DNA of 36,639 nucleotides from Komagataeibacter melaceti (GTDB lineage Bacteria > Pseudomonadota > Alphaproteobacteria > Acetobacterales > Acetobacteraceae): the NCBI RefSeq assembly GCF_003403295.1, contig NZ_QUWV01000164.1:1-36639 (forward strand), read 5' to 3'. How positions within the stretch are numbered: the stretch's first letter is position 1; each line of letters starts with the position of its first letter. The notes under the pieces were generated by a model, which was not told the DNA's origin, ran no database searches, and saw only the letters and a list, made by a program, of their open reading frames with translations. Positions 8,536 to 30,082 of this stretch are shown here, in pieces. The translations under genes were made by a program, and so were the position numbers.

Positions 8536-8577
8536 CATGATGGACTGAATAATGCATATTACTGGAAAAAGTACAAG
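8536..8577 (-). promoter_or_regulatory. 42-bp repeated element A, candidate phage late promoter
   Basis: This 42-bp segment matches 30041-30082 at 37 of 42 positions in the same orientation. Read on the minus strand it contains TTGTAC, 16 nt and CATTAT, a poor sigma70-like promoter that could need an activator or antiterminator. A terminator hairpin follows within 20 bp and then the hub gene. The other copy precedes the terminase block and is also followed by a hairpin. The shared design points to a phage-controlled late promoter. Confidence 0.55.
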
Positions 8578-8647
8578 GGCGAAGTCGGCGCAAGCGAAAA
8601 TCGCCTTATACCACCCGCCATAGGGCACAACCCTGCATGCAGGCAGG

Positions 8648-8977
8648 TCAGAACGGATTTTCCACGATACTCTCTGGCTGGGCATCCTGCATCTGTTCAT
8701 CAACGGTGTGGGGTGAGCGCGTGGTGCTGCGCCGGGTCGAGCGCGGGGTATGCTGGCGGGCCACCCTGACGCCAGACCGATGGTCGCCCTCTGCCTCGGC
8801 CTGGCGCTCGCACACATATGCGCCGTGTTTCGTTCGCCCATACCAGCGATCCCCTGGCAGGTGATAGACGCCAGTATTCTGGTTGACCCACACCACCGTA
8901 TCGCCGGGACAGGATGGAGCGGCTTGGGCGGCTGGGATTGTGCCGATCAGGACGGCGGCGAGAATCAGGTGGCGCAT
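8648..8977 (-). CDS. Small secreted protein with WVN-RWYG motif (paralogue 1)
   Basis: 109 residues from the ATG at 8977, chosen because it gives a clear signal peptide (MRHLILAAVLIGTIPAAQA, cleavage before APSC). The mature part has VVWVNQNTGVYHLPGDRWYG then TKHGAYVCERQAEAEG, with two cysteines, followed by an Arg/Ser/Thr-rich tail. The WVN-x-VYH-x-RWYG-x-TK-x-G-x-Y-x-CE pattern recurs in the plus-strand gene at 13946. Proteins with this short motif are common in bacteria and phages, but no function is known to me. Export to the periplasm is expected. The ribosome-binding site is weak. Confidence 0.65.
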   Translation of the reverse strand: MRHLILAAVLIGTIPAAQAAPSCPGDTVVWVNQNTGVYHLPGDRWYGRTKHGAYVCERQAEAEGDHRSGVRVARQHTPRSTRRSTTRSPHTVDEQMQDAQPESIVENPF

Positions 8978-9080
8978 GATGCGGATATACCGGCATAGGT
9001 GAAACAGAAGATGACCAGATAAACGCATAGCGTCCATGCGCGGTCGAGCTTAGAGCGACTCTCGCGCGCGTGGAAGAATG

Positions 9081-9094
9081 CCTTCTTTTGAAGG
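9081..9094 (+). promoter_or_regulatory. Hairpin covering the RBS of the DUF2441-like gene
   Basis: CCTTC, a TTTT loop and GAAGG form a 5-bp stem whose 3' arm is the Shine-Dalgarno (AAGG, 6 nt before ATG 9101). A competing GAAG/CTTC pairing just upstream is also possible. The stem is short, so an effect on translation is only a possibility. Confidence 0.4.
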
Positions 9095-9100
9095 TGCCAA

Positions 9101-9742
9101 ATGCGCAAAGTAGAAAATGAGATTTTTTATCATATCAATCGATATGGGCACAATAATTTACTGGGCCCAATGGAGGTTGGTAAAACATATAAAGTAGGGG
9201 ATGAATACAATAATTTTTTTCGCAGCCATTTCGAGCACTCTCCTGTTTGGCCAGTTAAATACGGAGAGAAAAATATCATTTCAACAGCTCCAGCCCTGAA
9301 CGTACTTATGAAATGTATTGATAACACAATTCAGTCCACTGATATAAAAGACGTAGCGAAGCCAAATTTTCAAGGGACTTATTTTCTAGGTCTGCATTAT
9401 GCGACGCTTGCTCGAGAACTAATATGGGAACAGGTACGTCTTTCCCATTTTCCCGATCATCCATCCCGGCAGAAATGCTTATGGTTATGTGAACAAGATT
9501 CTATTAAATTCTGGATTGATCAAATTAAGAATCAAGAGGGAAAATTTCAGATATTAGAAGTATCTGCAACAGGGAATGTTTGCGAATGCTATCAAAATTT
9601 TTTATTATGCATTTTGCATGCAAAACCAGAATATATTAAAAATGCTCATAGTTACTGGAAGGGAGAAGTCAGCGGAACTTACTCAAAAGAAATACTATTT
9701 GAAGGAAGTCTATTTGTTGAAAAAGTGATTGAGATAAAATAA
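9101..9742 (+). CDS. DUF2441-like protein, AT-rich cargo gene
   Basis: 213 residues on the plus strand, in clearly AT-rich DNA unlike the surrounding late genes. The N-terminus has FYHINRYG. The middle has ARELIWEQVRLSHFPDHPSR followed by KCLWLCEQDSIKFWIDQI, and later FQILEVSATG. The FYHI start and the (L)IxExVRxxxFPxxPSR segment match what I recall of DUF2441, a family of unknown function. An N-terminal YH and late acidic residues are reminiscent of ADP-ribosyltransferase-like folds, but that is speculation. It stands alone, convergent with the next minus-strand gene (stops 1 bp apart). Composition and position mark it as recently acquired lysogenic cargo. Confidence 0.7.
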   Translation: MRKVENEIFYHINRYGHNNLLGPMEVGKTYKVGDEYNNFFRSHFEHSPVWPVKYGEKNIISTAPALNVLMKCIDNTIQSTDIKDVAKPNFQGTYFLGLHYATLARELIWEQVRLSHFPDHPSRQKCLWLCEQDSIKFWIDQIKNQEGKFQILEVSATGNVCECYQNFLLCILHAKPEYIKNAHSYWKGEVSGTYSKEILFEGSLFVEKVIEIK

Positions 9743-9743
9743 C

Positions 9744-10196
9744 TTACTTAATCCACAATTCCCAACCTTGCTTCGCGGAAAGAACCAAAGAGGGATCAGG
9801 CTCGTCTGTCCCTCTTTTTGGTAAGCATAGTGTTCTCACTGTATTCCAATCGGGCAGATCCTCCGCCGCGACAAAGCTATAATTTCCGTCAAGATCAACA
9901 AATGTGATACCCTTGCGGTGCAGGTGAAGACGATTGTCTGTATCATTAGGGAATTGTTCTGCTTGAGCTATCGCAGATGCTCGATATAGCTTCTGGCCTT
10001 TGATGCCGCCGGAAAAGGCGAAAGTGACGGCATGCTTCTTGCCGCTAATCATGAGGTTGGTAGTGAAGTCCGCAGGTGGCAGGCTGGACCCGTTGGGTGA
10101 CGACAGCATCAACATGGACGCGTCACCGTCGAACGGTTCCAGCCAGATATGCCCGGAACCTGCGAGGGGAACGGTTTTCTTCGCCGTCTCTGTCAT
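9744..10196 (-). CDS. Hypothetical phage protein
   Basis: 150 residues with no family I recognise. ATG 10196 is preceded by TAGGAG at a good distance. The sequence looks like a compact beta-rich globular protein (SGHIWLEPFDGDASMLMLSS, HAVTFAFSGGIKGQKLYRAS, GITFVDLDGNYSFVAAEDL) with no membrane span or cysteines. A candidate leftward promoter overlapped by a 34-bp palindrome lies about 75 bp upstream, so this gene may be under separate control from its neighbours. Confidence 0.6.
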   Translation of the reverse strand: MTETAKKTVPLAGSGHIWLEPFDGDASMLMLSSPNGSSLPPADFTTNLMISGKKHAVTFAFSGGIKGQKLYRASAIAQAEQFPNDTDNRLHLHRKGITFVDLDGNYSFVAAEDLPDWNTVRTLCLPKRGTDEPDPSLVLSAKQGWELWIK

Positions 10197-10270
10197 GCCG
10201 CGCTCCTACGTCTCGATCAATCCTGATGATTGAAGATATGAGGCAGGTGGCAATCCACTGGGTGCGACTT

Positions 10271-10304
10271 CTGCCAAAGCGGTAATATAATACCGTTTTG
10301 GCAG
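10271..10304. promoter_or_regulatory. 34-bp palindrome, site 1 (operator or recombination-type site)
   Basis: Arms CTGCCAAAGCGGT (10271-10283) and ACCGTTTTGGCAG (10292-10304) are inverted repeats with one mismatch, around an 8-bp AT core AATATAAT. On the minus strand TGGACA, 17 nt and TATATT span the site, so it could be an operator lying on a leftward promoter for the gene at 9744-10196. A related site occurs at 14941. Confidence 0.6.
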
Positions 10305-10323
10305 GTTGTCCATTTTGGACAGC

Positions 10324-10352
10324 AAAAAGGCCGCCCCGCGATGGAGGCGGCC
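10324..10352 (-). terminator. Intrinsic terminator after the antirepressor operon
   Basis: On the minus strand GGCCGCC pairs with GGCGGCC and is followed by TTTTT. It lies just past the stop of the gene ending at 10359 and should end the leftward RHH/KilA-N transcript. Confidence 0.75.
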
Positions 10353-10358
10353 AGTTTC

Positions 10359-10781
10359 TTATCCGATCAACTCACGCTCCCGGCCAATTTCACAGCCAGG
10401 TATCAGCATCTTCACCGCAGCGGGTGGCCGTGACTGACCTTCTCGGTCCGCGATGACACGAGCGACATACTGGACACACTCACCCATGGCCTGCCACAGT
10501 TCTTCAGCAGATTTCCTGCCGCCAACGTAGTCCATCGTCCCGAAGAACGGGGCATAACACATCTTCCCGATCTTCTCGGGTGAAGTGTCTACCTTCCCTT
10601 CCTCCTGCGGCTCCACACCAATCCCACGCTTGCGCAGGAACGCGCACCGGGCCTGCTCCACCACAGCCTTGATGCCCAGACGGCAGCGGATATGCCGGAT
10701 CAGGTCGTTCCGCCGCCACTTCGCGTTGGCATCGTTCGGTCGGCCCTTGAGGTGTGTTTCCCATGCCTCGCAGTTCGCCAT
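10359..10781 (-). CDS. Hypothetical protein downstream of the KilA-N gene
   Basis: 140 residues from ATG 10781. It is rich in Arg and Trp in its first half (WRRNDLIRHIRCRLGIKAVVEQ) and is otherwise without recognisable motifs. The ATG lacks a good RBS. The frame stays open upstream through the KilA-N 3' end, encoding plausible sequence (ALTENPVSGHYPEDEELLIW) with no ATG, GTG or TTG in the gap. The true start could therefore be an unusual codon (a CTG lies 7-8 nt after AGAGGA) or the protein could be joined to KilA-N by frameshifting. It belongs to the leftward operon ending at the 10324 terminator. Confidence 0.55.
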   Translation of the reverse strand: MANCEAWETHLKGRPNDANAKWRRNDLIRHIRCRLGIKAVVEQARCAFLRKRGIGVEPQEEGKVDTSPEKIGKMCYAPFFGTMDYVGGRKSAEELWQAMGECVQYVARVIADREGQSRPPAAVKMLIPGCEIGRERELIG

Positions 10782-10840
10782 CCAGATCAGCAGTTCTTCA
10801 TCCTCTGGATAGTGCCCGCTGACCGGGTTCTCCGTGAGGG

Positions 10841-11698
10841 CTACACTGTTGCGGTCTCCGGCTTCTTGGCGAAAGGGACAGATACAGACTCTCCCTTGAC
10901 GGCAAGATGAGACGAAAGAACCGCAAGAACCCGTTCAGACCAGCGATAGGTTTGCACGGACCCATCCGAATGAGCCTTCCCCGTATCTGACAAACGGGCA
11001 AACTGCATGCCGCTTTCGGTGGGTGTCCATACGATCTTATTCTTCTTGTCGCGGCTGTCCGTATGCAACCCAGCCTCTTTCAGAAGCTGGTTTCCTGCGA
11101 TGCCTGGTCGCGATCCCGGAAGGTCGAGGCGCTCGGCAATCTCGCTGGCGTTCAGCGTCTTGGTATTTTCGGGCGCTTCATGGTGCGTAATGCCCATGAG
11201 CGTCAGCGGACTCTCGTTGCACTTCTTGTTGGTGTAGCGATCTGCATAAATCGACGCCTGATTATCGTCGAGGCCCAGTATCTTGGCGATGCCAAAGCCT
11301 GTACGGAATGTCGGCAGGACTGAGGGTTTACGGACACGCTTAACGGTCTTCTCCTTTTGCTTCCCCGCCAGAGCCTCCATCTTTTCACGCGCGGCCTGAT
11401 TGACCCAAGCGTGAAACTCAGGAGACAGCTTCTTGGCGTAAGCAAAAGCGATCTGCCAGTAAGCCCACGTTCCACCGCCCTTTCCGGGATTGGATTTTAT
11501 AACATGGGAAATTCCCATGTTTTGAGTTTCACTGATAAATTCGATGAACTTCTCAGCATCGGCAGACCGCTGCCATTCTGCAGGAGAACTTGAGGCGGGC
11601 TTCCCGGCGGCCTTCCACATGTCGGTGAGGCACAGCATTTCATCGCAGAAGTTGATTGGCTTTTCGTTGTAGACGAGGACGCCTTTGTTGGTGCTCAT
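10841..11698 (-). CDS. KilA-N domain antirepressor-like protein
   Basis: 285 residues. The first 105 residues are a KilA-N domain (INFCDEMLCLTDMWKAAGK, then GKGGGTWAYWQIAFAYAKKLSPEFHAWVNQ). The C-terminal half (LPTFRTGFGIAKILGLDDNQAS, LNASEIAERLDLPGSRPG) is a phage-type DNA-binding or protein-binding domain with a winged-helix look. KilA-N proteins are widespread phage antirepressors. Here the gene follows an Arc-like gene in one operon with ATGA coupling to the intervening small gene, the arrangement of ant in P22 immI. Antirepressor function is inferred from family and context. Confidence 0.8.
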   Translation of the reverse strand: MSTNKGVLVYNEKPINFCDEMLCLTDMWKAAGKPASSSPAEWQRSADAEKFIEFISETQNMGISHVIKSNPGKGGGTWAYWQIAFAYAKKLSPEFHAWVNQAAREKMEALAGKQKEKTVKRVRKPSVLPTFRTGFGIAKILGLDDNQASIYADRYTNKKCNESPLTLMGITHHEAPENTKTLNASEIAERLDLPGSRPGIAGNQLLKEAGLHTDSRDKKNKIVWTPTESGMQFARLSDTGKAHSDGSVQTYRWSERVLAVLSSHLAVKGESVSVPFAKKPETATV

Positions 11699-11994
11699 GC
11701 TGCGGCTCCCTTGGCTTCTTCCGCTTTTTCAAATGCACGCATAGCAGCGGCTCCCATCGCTCCGGCGATTTCCATGGCGTCTTCTGTTTTTATCCCAGAA
11801 ATCTTCGCCATCTCGGATATGGCCGTTGCTGCGCCTTCAACCGGACCTATGAGGTCAAGGCACTTCTTGCCCTGTGCATGATATGACAAGCCAATACGAT
11901 GCCCAATCTGGACATAAGTATCTATCGTAAGAACGCTGTCGCGCAGGTTCTGAATGACTGGACTATAGTTTTTTGAAGTGCTACGTTTCTGCAT
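11695..11994 (-). CDS. Small helical protein between Arc-like and KilA-N genes
   Basis: 99 residues, unrecognised. It is mainly helical and Ala/Glu-rich at the C-terminus (AMEIAGAMGAAAMRAFEKAEEAK). The middle has CLDLIGPVEGAATAISEMAKISGIK. The stop overlaps the KilA-N start (ATGA), so the two are translationally coupled, and a co-regulator or partner of the antirepressor is plausible. Confidence 0.6.
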   Translation of the reverse strand: MQKRSTSKNYSPVIQNLRDSVLTIDTYVQIGHRIGLSYHAQGKKCLDLIGPVEGAATAISEMAKISGIKTEDAMEIAGAMGAAAMRAFEKAEEAKGAAA

Positions 11995-12005
11995 AGCTGT
12001 ATTCC

Positions 12006-12188
12006 TTATTCAGCGTGAGAGGCATCGGGATTGCTTTGGTCGGCTCCCGGTGCCTTTTCTGTTTTTTGGGAATGATGAATGTACTGCTCAAGGCAGTATT
12101 CAATCTGACCTGTTATGGAGCGACGATTGGCCCTCGCGTTCTCTCGCATCCATTCGTTAATCCAACTTGATAATCGGACCCTGATCAT
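12006..12188 (-). CDS. Arc-like ribbon-helix-helix repressor
   Basis: 60 residues from ATG 12188, which has a perfect AGGAG 5-6 nt upstream; ATG 12209 (AGAGGG upstream) is a second possibility. MIRVRLSSWINEWMRENA, then NRRSITGQIEYCLEQYI, is a beta-strand/helix/helix pattern matching Arc/MetJ-type ribbon-helix-helix proteins; the RVRL strand would enter the major groove. It is the first gene of the leftward operon that leads to KilA-N, the position of arc in P22 immI. It is divergent from a Mnt-like gene. Autoregulation through the shared intergenic repeats is likely. Confidence 0.72.
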   Translation of the reverse strand: MIRVRLSSWINEWMRENARANRRSITGQIEYCLEQYIHHSQKTEKAPGADQSNPDASHAE

Positions 12189-12275
12189 CGGGTCTCCTCT
12201 CGCGGCCATATCGCCCTCTTTCGCAAAATGCCGCACCCGTGTGTCATTCCGTGCGGCAGACACACCGATAGCTTT

Positions 12276-12322
12276 TGTGTGGCATATCCGTCAAGGAAAA
12301 TGTGTGGCATGCTGTGTGGCAT
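12276..12322 (+). promoter_or_regulatory. Operator-like direct repeats in the divergent RHH promoter region
   Basis: tgtgtggcat occurs exactly at 12276, 12301 and 12313. An inverted, one-mismatch form (atgccgcac) lies at 12228. The third copy overlaps the start codon of the Mnt-like gene. On the minus strand TTGACG at 12294-12289 could be the -35 of the Arc-like operon, with a weak -10 about 17 nt on. These are the obvious binding sites for one or both ribbon-helix-helix proteins. Confidence 0.6.
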
Positions 12323-12782
12323 GGCACGAGAAGATCTTCATTTCCGTCTGCGCATACCGGAAGACCTGAAAAAACAGGTGCATGAAGCGGCAGAAAAACA
12401 CGGGCGATCCATGACCGCTGAAATCATTCAGAGGCTGGCATGGACGTTTGATGGTGGCTTCTATGACGATTTTGGACCGGATACCGTTAAGCCGGAAGCG
12501 TCCGCGAAGGTATCTTTGACCGGACTCCATAAACTCAGCGATGAATTGGCGACTCTTGAGGCCGCTCTCTATGCGGAGCAAGGAATGCTTATGGAGGCAA
12601 CCGATTACGCGGAAGATTTTGACAGCCCAGAAGATGCCAAAGATGCAGCGGAATTATCTGAAACCCGCATTGGACAACTGGAAAGGCGCATCGCGCGGGT
12701 CAGAAAAAAAATTGAAGCCGAGAGGCTCAAAGAGCGGAATGCGCCTAACCCTTTTTCCGATCCAGAGACAGAAAAAGGCTGA
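12321..12782 (+). CDS. Mnt-like ribbon-helix-helix repressor with coiled-coil tail
   Basis: 153 residues. MAREDLHFRLRIPEDLKKQV then EKHGRSMTAEIIQRL closely follows the start of P22 Mnt (MARDDPHFNFRMP, then NGRSMNSELLQ), which is why ATG 12321 was chosen. ATGs at 12300 and 12309 are also in frame and one sits at a better distance from AAGGA. The C-terminal 90 residues form a charged coiled coil (ETRIGQLERRIARVRKKIEAER). Mnt also tetramerises through a C-terminal coiled coil, though a shorter one. The gene is divergent from the Arc-like gene, as in P22 immI. It should keep the antirepressor silent in the lysogen. Confidence 0.78.
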   Translation: MAREDLHFRLRIPEDLKKQVHEAAEKHGRSMTAEIIQRLAWTFDGGFYDDFGPDTVKPEASAKVSLTGLHKLSDELATLEAALYAEQGMLMEATDYAEDFDSPEDAKDAAELSETRIGQLERRIARVRKKIEAERLKERNAPNPFSDPETEKG

Positions 12783-12785
12783 TAG

Positions 12786-12815
12786 AAAAAAGCCGCCCGA
12801 AGGCGGCTCTTTTTT
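12786..12815. terminator. Bidirectional intrinsic terminator
   Basis: AGCCGCC, a CGAA loop and GGCGGCT are flanked by an A-run on the left and CTTTTTT on the right. It works for the Mnt-like gene (stop 12782) on the plus strand and for the convergent membrane-protein gene (stop 12852) on the minus strand. Confidence 0.8.
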
Positions 12816-12851
12816 AAACGGGCATCAGCTCATAAATACCGCAGAATATTC

Positions 12852-13523
12852 TCATTGAGGCGCAGACGACATCATTGCTTCTAGCCCCGATTTTAATGCG
12901 AAGTCTTTATCCGAATGATAATTATCGGCAATTTCAGGGATAGATGTGAACCTAAAATTTTTCCAGTTGATTTTCGCCCATGTGGACTTTGAAAAAACAA
13001 AGTCGAACATAGGCCGTTTAACATCATTACCGAATTTATCCGGTTCTACATATTCCCAAGAAAATTTACATTTTTCTGGTGAATGGTTTTGCTCAAATAG
13101 ATGATGCACAAGACTCGCGCTAATTTCCGAAGCAACCATATCCATCATCGAATATCTTTCTGTATCTCCCATATAATCGGAAACAGAAGAATTAAAAAAA
13201 CCCATACCAATAACTTTTTTAAAGTTATTCCTGAACCTAATTTCATTAATCTCGGAAGATACTAAACACTTATTGTCGTTATATGTAAGATTTGTTGTTA
13301 TACCAATGCTATCATCTGGGTTATCCGCACCGATAAGCTGTGTTGGAAACTCCGTTGTCGACCATGCCAGTGTTTTCGGTGTACATAAAACAAAGTGCCC
13401 CTTGGACAACTCGCTTACCGAGCACCGGACATAATAAGATTTCTTATATTCAAATATAAATAATATAGATATAATTAATAAAAACAATAAAAGACACGCA
13501 TATATTTCCAGACGTTTATTCAC
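12852..13523 (-). CDS. AT-rich membrane-anchored protein of unknown function
   Basis: 223 residues from GTG 13523, which has GGAGGG at ideal spacing; the frame extends upstream to 13559 without support. One membrane span at about residues 6-24 (EIYACLLLFLLIISILFIFEY) is followed by a roughly 195-residue extracytoplasmic domain with four to five cysteines (VRCSVSEL, VLCTPKTL, NKCLVSSE, EKCKFSWEY). The DNA is much richer in A+T than its neighbours. The gene is flanked by terminators and opposes the Mnt-like gene. It looks like lysogenic conversion cargo, for example a surface or envelope protein. No family recognised. Confidence 0.65.
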   Translation of the reverse strand: MNKRLEIYACLLLFLLIISILFIFEYKKSYYVRCSVSELSKGHFVLCTPKTLAWSTTEFPTQLIGADNPDDSIGITTNLTYNDNKCLVSSEINEIRFRNNFKKVIGMGFFNSSVSDYMGDTERYSMMDMVASEISASLVHHLFEQNHSPEKCKFSWEYVEPDKFGNDVKRPMFDFVFSKSTWAKINWKNFRFTSIPEIADNYHSDKDFALKSGLEAMMSSAPQ

Positions 13524-13641
13524 ACTACCCTCCCTCAATGTGAATAAACTTTGTACCATTCCGCATTATCTAGCCAGAACAGACTGTCTTCGCCTACCGC
13601 AAACTGCCCCCACAATCTGCTGACTCGCCAGACTCGTCCGG

Positions 13642-13663
13642 CCTGTGGAAATATCCCCACAGG
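13642..13663 (+). promoter_or_regulatory. Hairpin overlapping the RBS of the zinc-ribbon gene
   Basis: CCTGTGG (13642-13648) pairs with CCACAGG (13657-13663) around an 8-nt AT-rich loop. The last three bases of the 3' arm are the start of the AGGAGG ribosome-binding site of ATG 13672. It could act on translation or be a protein operator. Confidence 0.45.
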
Positions 13664-13671
13664 AGGGCCGG

Positions 13672-13914
13672 ATGAGCGATCTAGGAAGCCTGCAATTCAG
13701 CCCGAAATGCCCCAAGTGCGGCGGAAACCTTGGCGTCGAAGTCAGCGATGGACAGCCTCGGGGCGATGATGAGATCATCTGCCAGTCCTGTGGCTTCGTC
13801 CTTGGGCCGCGCAGCGAGGTTTCGAAAAAAATCATCGCAGAGAATAGAAGCGAAATCGAGCGAGCGGCGGCCGATAAGGTCCGTGAGGTTTTGAGAAAGG
13901 CCATCGGGCAATGA
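13672..13914 (+). CDS. Zinc-ribbon protein
   Basis: 80 residues from ATG 13672, 5 nt after AGGAGG. CPKCGG near residue 10 and CQSCG near residue 35 form a C4 zinc ribbon. The rest is a charged helix (EVSKKIIAENRSEIERAAADKVREVLRKA). Small zinc-ribbon proteins of this design are frequent phage accessory genes; RNA polymerase or nucleic-acid binding is possible but unproven. A long frame on the opposite strand covers the same bases and is less convincing. Confidence 0.7.
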   Translation: MSDLGSLQFSPKCPKCGGNLGVEVSDGQPRGDDEIICQSCGFVLGPRSEVSKKIIAENRSEIERAAADKVREVLRKAIGQ

Positions 13915-13945
13915 AACGCGGATGGTCAGCGGCATTGTCTGCTTC

Positions 13946-14227
13946 ATGTTGACTTCCTTTCGAAAGGTAAGGGTTGCGGTTGCATTTCTCGCCCTACTAA
14001 CCCCCGCAGCATCCCACGCCTACGCGCCCCGGCACGACTACGCCCCTTCCAGTGCCCAGACTGAACCGGTCTGCCCTAAAGGTGACCAGCCGGTATGGGT
14101 GAACACCCGGTCCAGCGTCTACCATTACCGGCACGAACGCTGGTACGGGAACACGAAGTATGGGCAGTATGAATGTGAGAAAGACGCGCAGGCCGAGGGG
14201 CGTCAGCCTACGCGGAATGGGCAATAA
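13946..14227 (+). CDS. Small secreted protein with WVN-RWYG motif (paralogue 2)
   Basis: 93 residues from ATG 13946; ATG 13922 would add 8. A signal peptide (VRVAVAFLALLTPAASHA) precedes a mature part with VCPKGDQPVWVNTRSSVYHY, then RWYGNTKYGQYECEKDAQAEG. It is the same domain as in the minus-strand gene at 8648, with both cysteines conserved. The two genes face each other across the central part of the island. Function unknown; periplasmic location expected. Confidence 0.7.
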   Translation: MLTSFRKVRVAVAFLALLTPAASHAYAPRHDYAPSSAQTEPVCPKGDQPVWVNTRSSVYHYRHERWYGNTKYGQYECEKDAQAEGRQPTRNGQ

Positions 14228-14247
14228 ACAGGACGGAATATTCCTAA

Positions 14248-14532
14248 ATGAGCGATTCTGACGAAGGCCGCACAAAAAGCTGGACCGAAGATCCCTATTT
14301 CACTGACGCCCTGTATGCGCTGCGCGATAAGCGCGAACACGGCCTACGTTTCCTCACGATAGATCTGGATGCGATCGGAGAGGTTATGTCAAATGGAGAT
14401 GGACCCGCCTACCGTCTGCTTGATGCCATGGTCGACATTCAAGAGACGGAAGGCTACCACGGCAAGAGAGGCGCACCGCGCGTTCTGCTGGCAACGCTGC
14501 TTAGGCTGGCGGAGATTTCAAAAACGGTGTGA
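14248..14532 (+). CDS. Hypothetical small acidic protein
   Basis: 94 residues starting MSDSDEGRTKSW. It is mostly helical and acidic at the N-terminus, with HGLRFLTIDLDAIGEVM in the middle and an Arg/Leu-rich end (RVLLATLLRLAEISKTV). No family recognised. The start is preceded by GGACGGAA, part of which lies in a perfect 10-bp palindrome (GGAATATTCC). It is co-oriented with the zinc-ribbon and secreted-protein genes and probably shares their transcript. Confidence 0.6.
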   Translation: MSDSDEGRTKSWTEDPYFTDALYALRDKREHGLRFLTIDLDAIGEVMSNGDGPAYRLLDAMVDIQETEGYHGKRGAPRVLLATLLRLAEISKTV

Positions 14533-14568
14533 TGGCGTCCTATAGGGGCGACTCATACGGCCGTGGAA

Positions 14569-14593
14569 GGGTGTCTCCGTAAAGGAGATACCC
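14569..14593 (+). promoter_or_regulatory. Strong hairpin sequestering the RBS of the 14594 gene
   Basis: GGGTGTCTCC (14569-14578) pairs over ten positions, one of them G-U, with GGAGATACCC (14584-14593), leaving a 5-nt loop. Most of the Shine-Dalgarno AGGAG is in the 3' arm and the ATG begins at the very next base. Translation should be off unless the stem is opened. Confidence 0.65.
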
Positions 14594-14914
14594 ATGTCAG
14601 ACGATCAGAAAAAACCTGCCGGTATGGCATCCGAAGAAGCAAAGGAATTCAAAGAGAAATGGGCAAAAATTCTATCATCAGAAAAGCCCGCTCTAGAATG
14701 CTTCTTTGACCTTACAACAACAGTAACCCTTTCTGCCGATGGATCGGTTTACCTTGATTGCCCAAGTCTGCATTTTCCGGGCTTTGATCAGGCGCAGATA
14801 GTTCGGGCCCACCTAACACCGGAAACAGTATCAATCCTAAAACACGCCCTTGCAGAGGCTGAAAAAAATCCGGGTAAGCCTGTTCAATTTTCCGCAAAAA
14901 ATCGGAGCCATTAA
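14594..14914 (+). CDS. Hypothetical protein with hairpin-controlled start
   Basis: 106 residues, Lys-rich and of lower GC than the tail genes. The first 40 residues are helical and charged (EEAKEFKEKWAKILSSEKP). The rest contains FFDLTTTVTLSADGSVYLDC and ETVSILKHALAEAEKNPGK. No family recognised. It is the last rightward gene of the island, running into the 34-bp palindrome and the convergent tape measure gene. Its start codon directly follows a 10-bp stem containing the RBS. Confidence 0.6.
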   Translation: MSDDQKKPAGMASEEAKEFKEKWAKILSSEKPALECFFDLTTTVTLSADGSVYLDCPSLHFPGFDQAQIVRAHLTPETVSILKHALAEAEKNPGKPVQFSAKNRSH

Positions 14915-14940
14915 CGGGCGTTATTTCCATTTCGGGTCTC

Positions 14941-14974
14941 CTGCCAATGCGGTATCATAATACCACATTGGCAG
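14941..14974. promoter_or_regulatory. 34-bp palindrome, site 2
   Basis: Arms CTGCCAATGCGGT (14941-14953) and ACCACATTGGCAG (14962-14974) flank an 8-bp core ATCATAAT. It agrees with site 1 (10271) at 28 of 34 positions in the same orientation, and both are followed by GTCCAT. It lies between the convergent 14594 gene and the tape measure gene. It could fold as a hairpin but has no T-run, so it is not a standard terminator. A minus-strand TGGACA-18-TATGAT promoter-like pair overlaps it. Confidence 0.6.
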
Positions 14975-14996
14975 GAGTGTCCATCATGGATGATGC

Positions 14997-17447
14997 CTAC
15001 CGACCAATCGCCCTACCCGGCAACTGCGGGTTCTGAAGCACGTCCGGGGCTGTGCCGCTGGCGCGCATGTCCTGCTGGGTCTGACGGAACTGCAGATCCT
15101 GAACTGTCGCGGCGATCTCTCGGCTATCAAGTTTTACACTGATATTCGCGGTCCCCACGTGCTGCGTGTTCGTGCCACCCGCCTGAGCAGGCTGCATCGC
15201 GGAAATGCGATTGGCCTGATGATAGCCCTCATGCGCCACGCCAAAGACGCTACCGACAACAGCGCCCCCAATAGCGCCCGCAGCGGTGCCTGCGCCCGGC
15301 AAAACAGAGCCGCCAATCGCTCCGGTCGCCGCTCCTGCCGCTGCGCTTTCGAGAATGCGGCGCAAAGGGCCTGGAATGTGGTCCAGAACCGCGCCAATGG
15401 ACCCAGCAATACCCCCCACAACGTGGATCAGGGCTGATATATCATCCGCAAACTGCCGGACATCATCGGGATGTCTCCCCACGAAATCACTGATCCCGTT
15501 GAACGCTCCGGTCAGCGCCTGCAGGGAACTGATAAATGGCCCCTGCGCGGCCTGACCCACCGTGAACTCCAATCGTTCCCATGCTGTGTGCATGGCGAGG
15601 GACTGGGCAGACTGGCCGCCTGACAGGGCATCCACCGATCGCATGGCATCCGTGCGACGGGCGGCAGCGGCCTGACGGGCGATATTCCCCTCAGCCCCCG
15701 TCGCCTCGCCCGCCAGATCCGACACGTTCATGCGCTGGATGTAGCCCGTCAAATCAGGATTTGACCTGATTAGTGGCGATAGATAGCGATTAATCCAGCC
15801 AATAGGGTCAGAGGTCAGTCGGGCCTGATCCACAAATCGCCCCTCACGATCTGTCAAGTGTAGTTTATCGCTGAAATACGCGAAGTCCCCATCAGTCATG
15901 CGGACATGATTGCCTGCAAACAGGTTTTCAAACGACCGCACCTGCATACCGGCGCGGGCCGGGTTCACGTCGATGAAATGGGCAAGGTTAAGCATGCCTT
16001 CATCGGACATGTTCTGCGCGGCCAAACCTGCAGACCGGGCGAATGACTGGAAGTTCTGCCCGCGCATGAACTGCCGGTTGGCAATGACCATACCCAGGGC
16101 AGAATTGGTGCTTTCCGACGCCCTTTCCATCGAGAACTGACCCGTGTGCGGGTCATAAAACCGGTTGGAAATGTCCTGTGCCCGGATAAACGCGATGCTT
16201 TCCCGCATCGCTTCCTCTGGCGATTTGCCCAGAAGCTGGAAGGTACGATCCACACGGTTAATCAGGGACGTAACCGGGGCCTGTTCCTCCATATGGCCAC
16301 CGCTAACCTCGTATGCCTCCTGTGCCATACGGGCTGCATCCACAGGCGTGAGGTAACGGTTTTCGCGCATGGCCTGCTGTGCGCTGGCCTGAATGGCGGA
16401 CATGTTTGCAGCAGCCTGCGGGTCACCCTGCATACCGAGGAACGTCTGGTCATACTGCCCGGTCTGGCTGAACGCGGATGCGAGCGTCTCCCCTGCCCCG
16501 TGGATGCCGGCATATGCCGCCATACCGGCCGCCAGCGGCCCAACACGCGGCACGCCGACACCCGACAACGCCCCACGGGCTGCCATCACCCCTTCCCCGA
16601 CTTCCCCCGGATTGACGGCGTGGGGGCCAGCATACGGAAACGGCCCATAAACATCGCTGCTACCATAATTCACGCCCATCGTGGTTTCGCGGGCGGACCT
16701 GTGGCGTTCTGGTGTTACGGATTCTGGACCGCCAGACATGGTGAAATCGGGCGCATATCCGGTTTCCGATCCCCGGAAGCTGGCCCCGTTACCCATGCTG
16801 CTGCCCTGCCCCGGAATGACCGTCAGCGCGCGGCTGGGCTCAGGCTGGTATTCCAGCAGTAGTGGCGACCGCTCGGCACGCGGGGGTGGCGGACCATAAG
16901 GCGCCCCCACCATGACGCCGGGACCGGTTGACCCGTACATGGGGCCTGGCGCGCCGCGCACCACCGTGATCTCCCCGCGCGGATCATACCCAAGCAGGGG
17001 AACAGGTGACGGTGCGGGCAGCAGGCGCGTTGGCGCGTCAGGCACATTGGTTGCTGCCGCCGAATAGGGCGAGACGTAACTGGAACGACCCAGATCGTCA
17101 GGCAGCGGCGGCGGGGCCGGTGGTGGCGCAGAAGAAGGCCGCGACGCCCCGCGACTGCGCGTAGGCTGATCCTCATCGGCGCCTGTGTACTGAGGCGCAC
17201 GGAACCGACCGGAAGCGGATGCAATATCTCGCGCAGCCCGCGCTGCACGCTCCATGTCATCCGCCATGCCGCCAGCCAGACGCCGCGCGCCGCCTAGAGA
17301 CGACACCATGCCATTGAAACCCTGTTGTGCTTCGCGCTGAGCAGACAACAGGCGTTCCAGCGCCTCGATCATCTCGCCAATCGGCCCGGTCACGCGGGTA
17401 GCGTTGGCGACGAGGTTTACGCCGATTTCATAGGCTTCGATGGGCAT
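14997..17447 (-). CDS. Tail tape measure protein
   Basis: 816 residues from ATG 17447 (GGAG upstream). The N-terminus (YEIGVNLVANATRVTGPIGE) and early coiled coil lead into a Pro/Ser-rich region, a long helical centre, and a glycine-zipper hydrophobic stretch near the C-terminus (AAAGAATGAIGGSVLPG, AAGAIGGAVVGSVFG). The last part is a polar tail. This layout is typical of tape measure proteins, which set tail length and pass into the host envelope. Using the usual 0.15 nm per residue, the tail would be about 120 nm. It is unusually separated from the downstream hub genes by the accessory island. Confidence 0.85.
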   Translation of the reverse strand: MPIEAYEIGVNLVANATRVTGPIGEMIEALERLLSAQREAQQGFNGMVSSLGGARRLAGGMADDMERAARAARDIASASGRFRAPQYTGADEDQPTRSRGASRPSSAPPPAPPPLPDDLGRSSYVSPYSAAATNVPDAPTRLLPAPSPVPLLGYDPRGEITVVRGAPGPMYGSTGPGVMVGAPYGPPPPRAERSPLLLEYQPEPSRALTVIPGQGSSMGNGASFRGSETGYAPDFTMSGGPESVTPERHRSARETTMGVNYGSSDVYGPFPYAGPHAVNPGEVGEGVMAARGALSGVGVPRVGPLAAGMAAYAGIHGAGETLASAFSQTGQYDQTFLGMQGDPQAAANMSAIQASAQQAMRENRYLTPVDAARMAQEAYEVSGGHMEEQAPVTSLINRVDRTFQLLGKSPEEAMRESIAFIRAQDISNRFYDPHTGQFSMERASESTNSALGMVIANRQFMRGQNFQSFARSAGLAAQNMSDEGMLNLAHFIDVNPARAGMQVRSFENLFAGNHVRMTDGDFAYFSDKLHLTDREGRFVDQARLTSDPIGWINRYLSPLIRSNPDLTGYIQRMNVSDLAGEATGAEGNIARQAAAARRTDAMRSVDALSGGQSAQSLAMHTAWERLEFTVGQAAQGPFISSLQALTGAFNGISDFVGRHPDDVRQFADDISALIHVVGGIAGSIGAVLDHIPGPLRRILESAAAGAATGAIGGSVLPGAGTAAGAIGGAVVGSVFGVAHEGYHQANRISAMQPAQAGGTNTQHVGTANISVKLDSREIAATVQDLQFRQTQQDMRASGTAPDVLQNPQLPGRAIGR

Positions 17448-17459
17448 GGCAGGCTCCGA

Positions 17460-17488
17460 CTGACAGGTGCGGCACAAATACGGATAAT
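17460..17488 (+). promoter_or_regulatory. Sigma70-type promoter for hicAB
   Basis: CTGACA, a 17-bp spacer and GATAAT match the -35 and -10 consensus at five of six positions each. It points rightward toward hicA and begins at the edge of the tape measure gene RBS on the other strand. The -10 region carries a small GATA/TATC inverted repeat that could be a HicB operator. Confidence 0.65.
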
Positions 17489-18137: not shown

Positions 18138-18141
18138 CCCT

Positions 18142-19634: not shown

Positions 19635-19663
19635 AAGAAAAAGCCGCCCGGTATGGACGGCTG
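19635..19663 (-). terminator. Intrinsic terminator between sheath and tube genes
   Basis: On the minus strand AGCCGTCC, a 5-nt loop and GGGCGGCT form an 8-bp stem (one G-U) followed by TTTTTC. It lies inside the late operon, 10 bp upstream of the tube RBS. Confidence 0.75.
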
Positions 19664-21170: not shown

Positions 21171-21173
21171 GGG

Positions 21174-21380: not shown

Positions 21381-21398
21381 TGGTTGTCCTCGGGTGGG

Positions 21399-22280: not shown

Positions 22281-22281
22281 A

Positions 22282-23748: not shown

Positions 23749-23756
23749 GCTGCCTC

Positions 23757-25731: not shown

Positions 25732-25748
25732 GGGTTTTATGTCCTTGT

Positions 25749-25802
25749 GATGCCGGAAATACGCCCCGGCATCAGCCGGTCAGCGAGGCCCGCATCAGCG
25801 GG
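25749..25802 (-). promoter_or_regulatory. Twin hairpins in the scaffold-capsid gap
   Basis: CCGGC-atca-GCCGG (25766-25779) and CCCGC-atca-GCGGG (25789-25802) form two adjacent 5-bp stems with the same loop. GATGCCGG at 25749-25756 can instead pair with CCGGCATC at 25766-25773, giving a mutually exclusive fold next to the capsid RBS. The same hairpin occurs at 26462. Confidence 0.5.
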
Positions 25803-25816
25803 CAGTTGGTAATTTT

Positions 25817-26437
25817 TCAGAGGGTCGGCCAGCGCAGGCCGGCGGCCGCGGCGGCTGACGCCACATCCTTGGTGTCCGCCTTGGTCGCATCGAACGGCGC
25901 CGGATCACCCGCCTTGGGCGCGGGCGTCGTCTTGGTCGTGCCGGTCTCGGTGCCCGGCTTGGCCGGTTCGGTAAACAGGTAGGCGCGGCTCTCGCGCGCG
26001 GCTTCCATCACCGCGTCGAGGCCTTCGACCTGACCGTTCTCACCCATCTTGACGGTGCCGAGGTCGATCAGCTTCACCACATCCTCGGGATTGACCGCGC
26101 CCAGACGAACGGCGGCAGCCTTGGCTTCGGCCCGGATGACGGCGGCATTTGCCTTTTCCGTCGCCCCTTTGGTTGCGGCTTCAGCATCGGCCTTGGCCTG
26201 CTCGATGGCGGCGTTCGCGTCGGCCAACGCCTTCTCGCCATCAGCCTTCTGCTTGTCAAACTGGGCCTTGAGGCCATCGCGCGACTTGATCGCCTCGTCA
26301 CGTTCGCCGCGAATGGTGTCGCGCTCAGACCGCGCGGATTTCAGTTCGCCGCGCAGCGTCACGAGATCAGCGCGCGCCTTTTCCAGTTCGCGCACCGTGT
26401 TGGGATCGATGGGCGTGTTCGTCGGTTCTGTGGTCAT
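25817..26437 (-). CDS. Capsid scaffolding protein
   Basis: 206 residues, highly charged and helical. An extended coiled coil at residues 12-110 (RELEKARADLVTLRGELKSA, SERDTIRGERDEAIKSRDGL) is followed by AVRLGAVNPEDVVKLIDLG and a Thr/Pro/Lys-rich tail. This is the standard look of gp20/DUF4355-type scaffolds encoded between portal and capsid. No protease domain is visible. Confidence 0.82.
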   Translation of the reverse strand: MTTEPTNTPIDPNTVRELEKARADLVTLRGELKSARSERDTIRGERDEAIKSRDGLKAQFDKQKADGEKALADANAAIEQAKADAEAATKGATEKANAAVIRAEAKAAAVRLGAVNPEDVVKLIDLGTVKMGENGQVEGLDAVMEAARESRAYLFTEPAKPGTETGTTKTTPAPKAGDPAPFDATKADTKDVASAAAAAGLRWPTL

Positions 26438-26461
26438 CTGACCCTCTGTGTTGTGAATGAT

Positions 26462-26475
26462 CCGGCATCAGCCGG
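26462..26475 (-). promoter_or_regulatory. Hairpin in the portal-scaffold gap
   Basis: CCGGC-atca-GCCGG, identical to the first hairpin in the scaffold-capsid gap, lying just downstream of the portal stop side and about 25 bp before the scaffold start. Confidence 0.45.
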
Positions 26476-26481
26476 GAAACG

Positions 26482-27999
26482 TCAGGCCGTGACCTGACGT
26501 GTCTCTGTGCGCCCTGCTCCGGCTGCCTGCCGGTCGGCCTTGGCGGCATTGGCTGCGGCCTGCCGCTTGGCGATCAGGACCGGATCGGACAACTCGTCCA
26601 GAACGCGGTTCCATTCCTCCTGCGGGCTCGCAGTGCCCACCTTGGCGGCATAGATGCTGCAGGCGGTCTCGTTGCTCATGAAGCCGCTGGCCACAGCCGT
26701 TGCGAGGCCCTGCGCAAGCTGCAGCAGTTCGGGGTCCGTGCTGGGGAAGTAGGGCGGCCACTGGAGCGCGAGGCCGGTGTCGTCCAGACCCACATAGTCG
26801 TTCCCGCCGATCCTGATCCCGCCAGTCAGCACATGCGAGAACCGGCAGATCATGCGATACAGCGCCAGCAGCCCGTATTCGCCGTAAGACAGGCGCAGGC
26901 GATCGGCCAGCCATACGAGGCTTTGGCACATCATCTCCATGGCCCGGCCAGACTGCGCGGCGCTGATCTTGTCCGCGCTGGCCCGGTTGCCGTGGATCTG
27001 CTCGAGCACGATGGCGCGCAGTTCCCGGTATTGCGCCAGCATGGCCGCCGAGGCGTCGCCGTTGATTTCCAGCATCTTGGCGTCGCCATCCATGGGGAGG
27101 ATGAGGGCCGATGCCGCGCCGCCGGTTGTGCCGCCGTCGCTGTCTGCGCCTGCCGGATCGCCCTTCCCGGCCTTGATGACCAGCTTGGGATCAGAACTGT
27201 ATTTCAGCCCGCGACCAGACTGCGACAGCAGATAATCGCATTCGATGACCGTATCGATGGCACGCTCGAATGTGCAGGGTCCGTCCACCGTGCCGGGCAG
27301 GGCCATGTTCGCCATCCAGACCCATGGGACGAAACCGAGGCCGTGCCGGGTGGTTCGTTTCTCGTCAATCCGGTTCGGCAGCCCGTCCGCCACCCGTGTT
27401 GGCACATAGACCTGGCATGCTGTCTTGTCCCACTCGCGCCGCCACCAAAACCATGCCTGTGCGTCATCGGGGCCAATGGGCCAGCCCTGCGCCGCCAGAT
27501 CGCCACCTTTGACCTTGTAGCATTCCGTCATGCTGACCAGTTCGCCAGCGACACCCCACTGCGGCGTCAGAAACCGGGTTCCATGCAGGGAAACGCACGG
27601 CCTGCGGTCCACGGTCTCCACCAGCAGGGCAGACGATCCGACCGAACCGGAAATGACCGCCTCGATCAGCACGGCAGGCAGGGCACATTCCCGGTCCAGC
27701 GCCGCCATGATGCCCGGCACCGTCTCGTCTACTGCCGTCAGCGCAGGCCAGTGCATCTCACCAAACACCAGCGAGGCGCTTTCATCCACCACAGTCGCGC
27801 ACATGTTGGTGCGAACCGACGGGCGGCGTTTGTCGAGCGGGATGTATTCCCCTGCCCCGTTGTATTCGCTGCTGAACGGGTTCGGGATGTCGTCATACTG
27901 TGTGCAGTCCCGGACCCGCATCAGGGCTGTCAGGCGGTTTGCGCGCGCTGGCAGGTCGGTATCCTGCGGATAGGTTTCCTTGAGTTGCTTCCAGTCCAT
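26482..27999 (-). CDS. Portal protein
   Basis: 505 residues, between the large terminase and the scaffold. It has RRPSVRTNMCATVVDESASL near residue 60, GDASAAMLAQYRELRAIVLEQ around residue 325 and SGRAMEMMCQSLVWLADRLR near 355. These fit SPP1 gp6-like portal proteins, with the long crown-side helices in the last third. It would form the dodecameric packaging vertex. No Mu gpF-like head protein follows it, so the cluster goes straight to scaffold and capsid. Confidence 0.88.
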   Translation of the reverse strand: MDWKQLKETYPQDTDLPARANRLTALMRVRDCTQYDDIPNPFSSEYNGAGEYIPLDKRRPSVRTNMCATVVDESASLVFGEMHWPALTAVDETVPGIMAALDRECALPAVLIEAVISGSVGSSALLVETVDRRPCVSLHGTRFLTPQWGVAGELVSMTECYKVKGGDLAAQGWPIGPDDAQAWFWWRREWDKTACQVYVPTRVADGLPNRIDEKRTTRHGLGFVPWVWMANMALPGTVDGPCTFERAIDTVIECDYLLSQSGRGLKYSSDPKLVIKAGKGDPAGADSDGGTTGGAASALILPMDGDAKMLEINGDASAAMLAQYRELRAIVLEQIHGNRASADKISAAQSGRAMEMMCQSLVWLADRLRLSYGEYGLLALYRMICRFSHVLTGGIRIGGNDYVGLDDTGLALQWPPYFPSTDPELLQLAQGLATAVASGFMSNETACSIYAAKVGTASPQEEWNRVLDELSDPVLIAKRQAAANAAKADRQAAGAGRTETRQVTA

Positions 28000-28014
28000 G
28001 CGGCCCCGTGGCCG

Positions 28015-29325
28015 CTATCGGCCCAGATTGAAACGTGTTGGTACGAAGCGCGCCGGTGCGGCCGGCGGCGGCCCGAGCATCAGGTCAGTCAGTGCCCAGA
28101 CCAGTGCATCCGCCCGGTCGGGCGAGCGTGCGCCCTGGAACCCGCTGGCCGAGAACTGGCAGAGCTGGTCCTCCATGTCGGGGAACCGGCCGTGGTGCGT
28201 GACCTTGCCCTGTTCATAGAGCGCGGCCACCGGCTCAGCCCGGGCGAACTTGCCGCGTGAAGCCGTGACCAGCGTGACTGGTGCCGTGGCGCGGGCTGCG
28301 CGGATCGTGCTTTCGACCATCGCGCCGCCAAAGTTTTTCTCGGCCACAATCCGGTCGCCCCGCCACAGGTCCAGCGCATCCAGTGCGATCTTGGCCCACC
28401 CCGCGGGGCCGGTCCGGCAGGACAGGTCGGCAAGCACATGCCCGTTGCCGTCTGCATCCACACCACAGACCGATATGCCTATCTCATCCGAGCGATAATC
28501 TTCGGGGCCGGAACAGCCCGATGGATCAACCGCCACCACGATGCGCCGCATGCGCGCCAGCACGGCAGCGCGGTTGGCATCGGTTATCGCTGCCTCACGC
28601 CTGATACGGTCCAGCGTCCACAGCGCGCCTTCAATCGCAGTCTGATAGTTGCCGAACAGGAAGCGTTGTCGCTCCTTCTCCGGCAGGCTTTCAAGTTGCT
28701 TCAGGTATTCGGGCGACAGGTTGGCCCGATTGCTGTCCGGGTTGATCTGCATGGTTGCATAGTCGGCCGGATCGGGCAGCGGCTCGCCAGATTTCGGTTC
28801 AACGTGCCGCTCGAACAGGCTGTAGAGCCAGTGCGAAGTCGTGGGAGGGTTGGCGTCGATGTATTCCTTCACGCGCAGGCTGGATTTTTGCGCCAGGCGC
28901 GTCAGCAGCATGTTGCGTGCGCCGTAACTGATCTGGCTGGCTTCGTTCAGATAAACCGTGGCGAACTCAAGGCCGAGGATCTTCTCGGTGCGGTCGGAAC
29001 TGTCGAGGCCGTGGAACAGGATTTCGGACCCGTTCGGCAGGGCCACATACCAGTCAGTGCGGTTCAGGTTGTAGGGCACATCCGGAAAACACAGGCGCAT
29101 CACCTTGGGGAACGTGTCCCCGATAATGGAGTGTTTCAGGGCATTGAACCGATGCCGGAAGATGCCGTGCCGTGTGCCTGGCGCCTTGGCCGCGCGAATG
29201 ACCAGTGCGCGGATCAAAAGGAAGGTTTTCCCCGAACGCGAACCACCACGCAGGAGGATGTGCGTGGCCGGACTGCCCAGCAGCCGGTTTGCCTCCTGCT
29301 GGGCCGGGTTCAGCTTGGCGACCAT
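28015..29325 (-). CDS. terL: Terminase large subunit
   Basis: 436 residues. A Walker A motif GGSRSGKT at residues 27-34 and a Walker B-like TVYLNEAS at about 123-130, with the catalytic Glu, define the packaging ATPase. The nuclease domain has VAVDPSGCSGPEDY near residue 260, VAEKNFGG and the terminal SPDRADALVWALTDLMLG. ATG 29325 overlaps the small subunit stop (TAATG). The Walker B has N-E rather than D-E, as in several related terminases. Confidence 0.95.
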   Translation of the reverse strand: MVAKLNPAQQEANRLLGSPATHILLRGGSRSGKTFLLIRALVIRAAKAPGTRHGIFRHRFNALKHSIIGDTFPKVMRLCFPDVPYNLNRTDWYVALPNGSEILFHGLDSSDRTEKILGLEFATVYLNEASQISYGARNMLLTRLAQKSSLRVKEYIDANPPTTSHWLYSLFERHVEPKSGEPLPDPADYATMQINPDSNRANLSPEYLKQLESLPEKERQRFLFGNYQTAIEGALWTLDRIRREAAITDANRAAVLARMRRIVVAVDPSGCSGPEDYRSDEIGISVCGVDADGNGHVLADLSCRTGPAGWAKIALDALDLWRGDRIVAEKNFGGAMVESTIRAARATAPVTLVTASRGKFARAEPVAALYEQGKVTHHGRFPDMEDQLCQFSASGFQGARSPDRADALVWALTDLMLGPPPAAPARFVPTRFNLGR

Positions 29326-29786
29326 TACAGCGCGTCGTCGTCTTTCGTGATGTTCATGGTGATATTGCCGCTCTGTTGCACGTCATAGCGTTCACGGAAT
29401 TTCTCGGGCCGATGTGCCTTGAGTAGAAGCGTCATCAGGCCGTCAGAGCGTTTGCGGGTGGTCAGGTATTCCCCGGTCTTGGGATCGCGGACCAACTGAC
29501 CCATCGAGACCACGTATTCCTCATCGCCCTCAATGGCGCGGCGGCGGGCCTCCTGTTCGAGCGCATCGATGCCTTCTTCCTCGGCATCATCCCAGCGTTC
29601 GGCGAACTCTGGTTCAGCCGCGCGCCAGCGGTGCACTGTGGTGCGGCTTACGCCCGCATGCCGGGCAGATGCGGAAATATTCCCCGTCTTGCGCAGGTGC
29701 TCTATGAAGATGTTCCGCGCATCGCGCGTAGGGTCTGTTCCATTTGTAACGGCCCGAGGCTTAGCCGGACCCTTGCGCCCAGCCAT
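29325..29786 (-). CDS. terS: Terminase small subunit
   Basis: 153 residues. The helix-turn-helix at about residues 33-55 (GNISASARHAGVSRTTVHRW) would bind the packaging site. It is followed by EGIDALEQEARRRAIEGDEE and DGLMTLLLKAHRPEKFRERY, typical of this family. It is the first gene of the late operon after the 42-bp element. Confidence 0.9.
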   Translation of the reverse strand: MAGRKGPAKPRAVTNGTDPTRDARNIFIEHLRKTGNISASARHAGVSRTTVHRWRAAEPEFAERWDDAEEEGIDALEQEARRRAIEGDEEYVVSMGQLVRDPKTGEYLTTRKRSDGLMTLLLKAHRPEKFRERYDVQQSGNITMNITKDDDAL

Positions 29787-29986
29787 ACGATCCTCCAGGC
29801 AATGATGATGCGTGCACTTCCCGCCTTATCCCGGTCTACTTACGGGCTGACAGGATTTTCCCATGCCGCCCAGCGAGGCCTTTGGGCACCAGTCGGTTAG
29901 GGAGGTCGGGATTTATCGGTTCCGTGCCAGAAACGCTGAAATGTCAGCCGCCCAAGCCGGGCATGGAACAGGGAAGCCCGCATACG

Positions 29987-30012
29987 AAAAACCGCCCTCT
30001 GCTGGCCGGTTT
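29987..30012 (-). terminator. Terminator-like hairpin downstream of late element B
   Basis: On the minus strand AAACCG-g-CC pairs with GG-g-CGGTTT (one internal mismatch) and runs into TTTTT. It begins 28 bp past the repeat element, matching the position of the terminator after element A. Confidence 0.55.
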
Positions 30013-30040
30013 CGTGTGTGCCGTTGCGGCGCATTTATTC

Positions 30041-30082
30041 CATGATGGCTCGAATAATGCACGTTACTGGAAAAAGTACAAG
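30041..30082 (-). promoter_or_regulatory. 42-bp repeated element B, candidate late promoter
   Basis: Matches element A (8536-8577) at 37 of 42 positions. Read on the minus strand, TTGTAC-16-CATTAT is conserved in both. It lies immediately after the gene at 30085-30630 and upstream of the terminase operon, the position of pR' after Q in lambdoid phages. Confidence 0.6.

What the first reader, a model, noticed from the sequence alone, without database searches (positions are those of the whole stretch)
8536..30082. Two copies of a 42-bp element, each followed by a terminator hairpin: a Q-like late control system
8536-8577 and 30041-30082 agree at 37 of 42 positions on the same strand and each is followed within 17-28 bp by an intrinsic-terminator-like hairpin. 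One copy precedes the terminase block. The other precedes the hub gene just after the accessory island. Promoter, immediate terminator, then late genes is the architecture of Q antiterminator control in lambdoid phages. The second copy would restart late transcription where the island with its rightward genes interrupts the operon. The repeat and hairpins are seen; the promoter and antitermination roles are inference.
Basis: partly seen in the sequence, partly recalled or inferred. Interest (0 to 1): 0.75.

Follow-up and report, generated by a model that had tools for sequence, protein, structure and literature searches.

The report
Twin late-gene switches in a prophage
A prophage of acetic acid bacteria carries two matching DNA switches, each a promoter-like element followed by a stop signal, one before the packaging genes and one before the tail genes, and both look as if they are read by one phage protein distantly related to a regulator of gene transfer agents.

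Summary
In detail: 37 of 42 bases match on one strand; 20 shuffles reached at most 31. A hairpin with a T-run follows each copy, imperfect at copy 2. The Q-type reading is well supported but untested at the bench. Copy 2 starts 2 nt after a 181-aa gene distantly related to DUF6456/GafZ; Caulobacter GafZ is a reported antiterminator. Eight phage records hold both a close relative of this gene and the 307-aa tail-side gene; all 8 have both copies (about 7 distinct phages). Sixteen of 18 distinct element sequences are followed by a strict terminator (background 0.7-2.3%). The spacer between putative -35 and -10 exists in three versions, and each phage carries the same version at both sites, as expected if one protein reads both. 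A -10-like motif keeps its A and T in 18 of 18. In the phages mapped, copy 1 closes an accessory island between tape-measure and tail genes. Two sister phages with an unrelated regulator family show the same layout with another element; other sister phages depart from it. Best reading: a twin Q-like late switch run by a GafZ-like antiterminator, a new variant of a known kind.

The parts
30085..30630 (-). 181-aa putative antiterminator (Q position), distant DUF6456/GafZ relative, phrog_31762; C-terminal part resembles sigma domain 4 in a modest-confidence model
30041..30082 (-). Element copy 2 (late-promoter-like, before terminase)
30076..30081 (-). putative -35 TTGTAC, copy 2
   Evidence: by hand; conservation
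30062..30075 (-). spacer core, putative antiterminator binding element, copy 2
   Evidence: changes in step with copy 1
30054..30059 (-). putative -10 CATTAT, copy 2 (weak; register uncertain by 1)
   Evidence: by hand
30042..30047 (-). putative pause-inducing -10-like CATCAT, copy 2
   Evidence: its A and last T invariant in 18 of 18
29988..30013 (-). intrinsic-terminator-like hairpin, copy 2 (one mismatch; fails the strict rule)
   Evidence: homologues
29325..29786 (-). terS, first late gene after copy 2
8536..8577 (-). Element copy 1 (late-promoter-like, before tail genes)
8571..8576 (-). putative -35 TTGTAC, copy 1
   Evidence: by hand
8557..8570 (-). spacer core, putative antiterminator binding element, copy 1
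8549..8554 (-). putative -10 CATTAT, copy 1
   Evidence: by hand
8537..8542 (-). putative pause-inducing -10-like CATCAT, copy 1
8496..8518 (-). intrinsic terminator hairpin, copy 1
7556..8479 (-). 307-aa gene (phrog_36820, unknown function), first gene after copy 1
8648..14996 (.). accessory island between tape-measure gene (14997-17477) and copy 1, genes on both strands

Best explanation
Each copy is a Q-type late unit: promoter, antiterminator-loading site and immediate terminator. RNA polymerase would start near 30046 and 8541 on the minus strand, pause at a -10-like motif just after the start, and without the regulator end a transcript of roughly 50-60 nt at the hairpin. The 181-aa protein (30085-30630), encoded just upstream of copy 2, would bind the spacer between -35 and -10 with its sigma-4-like C-terminal part, board the paused polymerase and carry it through the hairpin. 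Copy 2 drives terminase and head genes. Copy 1 reloads polymerase downstream of the accessory island and drives tail and baseplate genes. SHOWN: the repeat, its conserved places, the conserved hairpins, distant kinship to DUF6456, matching spacer versions at both sites. INFERRED: promoter activity, pausing, binding, antitermination, and the reason for the second copy.
Confidence: 0.73

Rival explanations
1. Activator-type late promoters: a phage activator binds the element and recruits RNA polymerase; the hairpins are only terminators of upstream genes or leader structures.
For: Weak -35/-10. Multiple activator-driven late promoters are the rule in P2-like phages (recalled). GafY with IHF activates the GTA promoter in Caulobacter (PMC11150451, passages). 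Five sister phages have, by eye, a TTGTAC site before the 307-aa gene with no hairpin between.
Against: Hairpins lie between element and first gene in 16 of 18 distinct sequences, so promoter transcripts must cross them. The shared, step-wise changing part lies between the putative -35 and -10, not upstream.
Confidence: 0.13
2. RNA-based antitermination: the element acts in the transcript (nut/put-like) on polymerase coming from upstream, and is not a promoter.
For: Matching changes at both sites fit RNA or DNA recognition; copy 2 follows a gene read in the same direction.
Against: Four elements (window copies 1 and 2, L013, L041) fold no better than shuffles as RNA (z -0.01 to 1.16). The -35/-10/-10-like layout with two invariant bases would be unexplained.
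Confidence: 0.08
3. Plain conserved repeat: a repressor operator or a recombination or packaging site, with hairpins by coincidence.
For: Copy-1 sequences carry, by eye, a near palindrome across the -10-like motif (e.g. TCAGGGCATCATGCCCTGA).
Against: That palindrome is a feature of copy 1 rather than of both copies (by eye); hairpins follow far above background; both places precede late blocks.
Confidence: 0.06

Closest known systems
GafZ of the Caulobacter crescentus gene transfer agent (Tran & Le 2024, PMC11150451; abstract, passages and one section seen)
   Same: Distant kinship through DUF6456-type proteins; sigma-like HTH; putative binding element between -35 and -10; read-through of terminators in a capsid-tail cluster.
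   Different: GafZ has one target promoter and works with GafY and IHF; here there are two sites, each with an immediate terminator, and the gene next upstream (30815-31372) has no Pfam match.
Q with pR'-tR' of phage 21 (PMC6606751, passages seen) and lambda
   Same: Antiterminator gene next to the late promoter (recalled for lambda), binding element in the spacer, -10-like pause motif, terminator after the promoter, sigma-R4-like recognition domain (21Q).
   Different: No family-scan match to known Q proteins; two units in one genome, the second after an accessory island.
AlpA of Pseudomonas aeruginosa (PMC9371919, passages seen)
   Same: Binding element between -35 and -10, -10-like motif at -1 to +5, downstream intrinsic terminator.
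   Different: Described for the alpBCDE lysis operon; our protein shows no family-scan match to it.
Antitermination in the Bartonella gene transfer agent BaGTA (Korotaev et al. eLife 2025; only its title in a reference list seen; not held)
   Same: By title, antitermination ties together several phage-derived loci.
   Different: Details not seen; homology not tested.

Membership tests
Q-type late antitermination unit | Regulator gene immediately upstream of the late promoter | tested here: met
   Element begins 2 nt after the stop; same order in L008-L014, L041, phiKX1/2
Q-type late antitermination unit | Intrinsic terminator between promoter and first late gene | tested here: met
   16 of 18 distinct elements strict. 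The window's copy 2 is one of the two misses; it folds with a mismatch
Q-type late antitermination unit | Binding element between -35 and -10 | tested here: inconclusive
   Spacer version matches at both sites (post hoc); binding not testable here
Q-type late antitermination unit | -10-like pause element in the initial transcribed region | tested here: inconclusive
   xAxxxT invariant in 18 of 18; start site and pausing not testable
Known Q protein families (Pfam, PHROGs, NCBIfam) | Profile match | tested here: not met
   Only DUF6456 below threshold, phrog_31762 and 21451 of unknown function, weak SigM
DUF6456 (PF20057) | Gathering score | tested here: not met
   23.1 vs 26.3 bits for the window protein; 21 of 22 aligned relatives match at E<=0.1
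GafZ-like proteins | Profile-profile homology | tested here: met
   A6 vs A8: 94.6%, E 7e-8, 113 columns. A8 is 9 unnamed-genome proteins with strong PF20057 scores, not GafZ itself; PF20057 also hits Caulobacter in 1 of 14 control genomes, not checked to be GafZ
GafZ-like proteins | Adjacent GafY partner | tested here: not met
   30815-31372 has no Pfam match at E<=0.1
GafZ-like proteins | Antitermination with RNA polymerase and Nus factors | not testable with these tools
   needs bench work
P2-type activator control (Ogr) | Ogr-like gene and upstream TGT-N12-ACA site (recalled) | not tested
   not all proteins of the phage were scanned

The most novel reading that the evidence does not exclude
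GafZ-family regulators are at root phage late antiterminators. In phages of acetic acid bacteria they run a duplicated promoter-terminator unit, one before the packaging genes and one after an accessory island, so that cargo can sit in the late operon without cutting off the tail genes. Regulator and both sites swap as a set (three spacer versions, plus a non-homologous regulator family, phrog_16492, with its own pair of sites), which gives a ready-made recognition code and a second unrecognised antiterminator family.
Probability: 0.5. Interest if true: 0.75.

Novelty: new variant of a known kind. Interest (0 to 1): 0.62.

Why it matters
It places a distant relative of the gene-transfer-agent antiterminator GafZ in the classic Q position of temperate phages, a hint at where GafZ came from. 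It also suggests a simple genomic solution to cargo inserted in a late operon: a second copy of the promoter-terminator unit. The natural spacer versions make the recognition rule testable with existing phages.

Tried and rejected
Structured-RNA reading of the conserved ~140-nt leader between the copy-2 hairpin and terS: folding no better than shuffles (z 0.92); 5 of 36 predicted pairs have changes on both sides; Rfam nothing at gathering score, only three hits far below it. A cos/pac role is a guess.

Distant DUF6456 genes: 20 lower-scoring matches picked from the table (51 of 289 genomes matched); a hairpin passed the rule in 2 of 20. Some have terminase-like frames next, by eye, not scored. 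L026, L045 and L047 look by eye as if a hairpin follows, not scored.

Structure: Foldseek against PDB gave no match with E<=0.001. The sigma-4 resemblance comes from the second-look aligner. No Q protein is among its 50 rows shown, which excludes nothing.

phrog_16492 versus the DUF6456 set: no relation by hhalign. Its two sites share CTTGTA and TGTACA but little else (a 40-nt search with copy 1 did not find copy 2), so matching versions there are tentative.

Same-phage similarity between the two places in L175, L176, L177, L182 and L208 phages (5): none convincing.

Literature: DUF6456 occurs in 2 papers of the library, both on GTAs (listing; one seen in passages). Searches for GafZ (22), Komagataeibacter phage (33), late promoters and antitermination (94, 95, 109) and BrrG/BaGTA (112, 116) listed no description of this twin unit; I saw listings and some passages, and most subscription journals are not held.

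Full report
OBSERVATION. The two 42-nt stretches agree at 37 positions on the minus strand. In 20 dinucleotide shuffles the best 42-nt pair scored 28-31; the only higher real pair is a 177-bp tandem repeat at 1551-1904. A clean hairpin follows copy 1 (8518-8496, T6). The one after copy 2 (about 30013-29988) has a mismatch; scanners miss it, RNAfold forms it.

SETTING. The window is taken to be a Komagataeibacter prophage contig, from its named relatives. Minus-strand late genes run terS, terL, portal, scaffold, major head, sheath, tape measure, then an island, then the 307-aa phrog_36820 gene and tail/baseplate genes. Copy 2 begins 2 nt after the stop of a 181-aa gene (30085-30630) and lies before terS. 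Copy 1 lies 56 nt before the 307-aa gene, with its hairpin between.

RELATED PHAGES. In a first scan 4 of 60 genomes, the window's own included, held the element, all in one genus. The 181-aa gene, element, hairpin and terS occur in this order in L008-L014 and L041 and in phiKX1 and phiKX2 (terS by annotation in phiKX1; in the phiKX2 record the matching gene is called hypothetical). The two phages come from a study of mitomycin-inducible phages (PMC8566455, abstract start and passages) whose PHAST run calls phiKX1 incomplete and phiKX2 questionable; the stem 'antiterminat' does not occur in it. Eight phage records hold both a regulator of at least 70% identity and the 307-aa gene, and 8 of 8 have both copies: window, G335, G336, G337, G341, G698, phiKX1, phiKX2, about 7 distinct phages. 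The copies are about 18 to 21.5 kb apart, except in G336, where terL is cut and they are 5.1 kb apart. Records with one copy are fragments: G338, G339 and G340 have no 307-aa match; contigs of G006 and G011 are 4.7 and 5.4 kb. The regulator type was found in 9 of 79 loci with a related terL.

HAIRPINS. Of 18 distinct class I-III elements among the fetched loci, found with a pattern built on the known versions, 16 have a strict hairpin and T-run within 75 nt (an incomplete list gave 15 of 17). In the window and phiKX1, 0.7-2.3% of 75-nt windows pass. The misses are copy 2 of the window and of G010. Some stems change on both sides and still pair; G010's has one side changed and a broken pair.

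ELEMENT ANATOMY. By hand: -35 TTGTAC, 16-nt spacer, weak -10 (CATTAT or similar), a variable stretch, then a -10-like hexamer whose A and last T are invariant in 18 of 18. 21Q needs a -10-like motif and a binding element between -35 and -10; so does AlpA, whose motif spans -1 to +5 (passages). Here it spans -1 to +5 or +1 to +6, depending on the -10 register. As RNA, four elements fold no better than shuffles.

MATCHING CHANGES. Three spacer versions exist: I (window, G335, G336, G337, phiKX1/2), II (G698; L012 copy 2) and III (G341; G005). In each of 7 phages both copies carry the same version. Of 30 variable positions 10 agree in all 7 phages and 20 do not. Permuting partners gives an equal or better 14-nt spacer score in 72 of 5040 cases. 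The spacer was chosen after seeing the data; over 41 positions G698's copy 1 is no closer to its own copy 2 than to the window's. The C-terminal part of the 181-aa protein also differs by class, but the gene abuts copy 2, so linkage can explain that; the distant copy 1 is the informative one. Classes II and III are single lineages.

ISLAND. In the phages mapped (window, phiKX1, G341, G698; phiKX2 by annotation) 4.3-6.5 kb lie between the tape-measure gene and the 307-aa gene, with genes on both strands in the window and phiKX1, and copy 1 at the far end. G336 keeps part of the island; G335 and G337 were not mapped. Homologues of the 307-aa gene, some partial and some of them phage copies, occur in 18 of 19 genomes of the genus. 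Of 24 upstream regions read, the 15 of the more distant homologues have no element. Three of these loci were mapped (L122, L123, L130): homologues of the late genes and a 42-45% regulator homologue. In L122 a tape-measure remnant is 0.2 kb from the 307-aa gene; in L123 and L130 no tape-measure match was found. This fits, but does not prove, a reload role.

SISTER PHAGES. G699 and G700 have a second element type. In G700 phrog_16492 is in the Q position (no relation found to the DUF6456 set); the end of that gene overlaps CTTGTACCGCTGTACA, followed by a hairpin and, further on, terS. G699 has the same element and hairpin sequence at that place; its regulator was not scanned on its own. Before the 307-aa gene both have CTTGTA then CTGTACA or TTGTACA, and a hairpin (both G700 hairpins fold at z -2.3). 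Other sister phages depart from the layout.

VERDICT. It is not filed under a known Q protein family (no match) nor under DUF6456 proper (below threshold). Nothing has been shown at the RNA level.

Noticed in passing
window 10265-10312 and 14938-14983 (-): A second same-strand repeat (33 of 42): two sigma-70-like promoters inside a palindrome TGCCAA..GGTA..TACC..TTGGCA, one at the start of the island and one about 1.7 kb before copy 1; looks like repressor-controlled accessory promoters.
   Followed up: partly
Homologues of the 307-aa gene, some partial, in 18 of 19 genomes of the genus.
   Followed up: partly
window 29800-29960 (-): About 140 nt of conserved noncoding DNA before terS (A5); no unusual RNA stability; cos/pac candidate by guess.
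   Followed up: partly
window 19642-19662 (-): A further terminator-like hairpin inside the late region after the sheath gene, as one would expect if late transcription is antiterminated.
   Followed up: no
window 1551-1904: Tandem 177-bp repeat inside the 723-aa gene 1195-3366, which has no PHROG match; a tail fibre is a guess.
   Followed up: no
L254:17467-18009: phrog_16492 protein in the Q position of sister phage G700, candidate second antiterminator family.
   Followed up: partly
window 8648-9037 (-): Last island gene, a short protein with a weak 'sunset' domain match; homologues lie just before the 307-aa gene in phiKX1, G336, G341 and G698.
   Followed up: no
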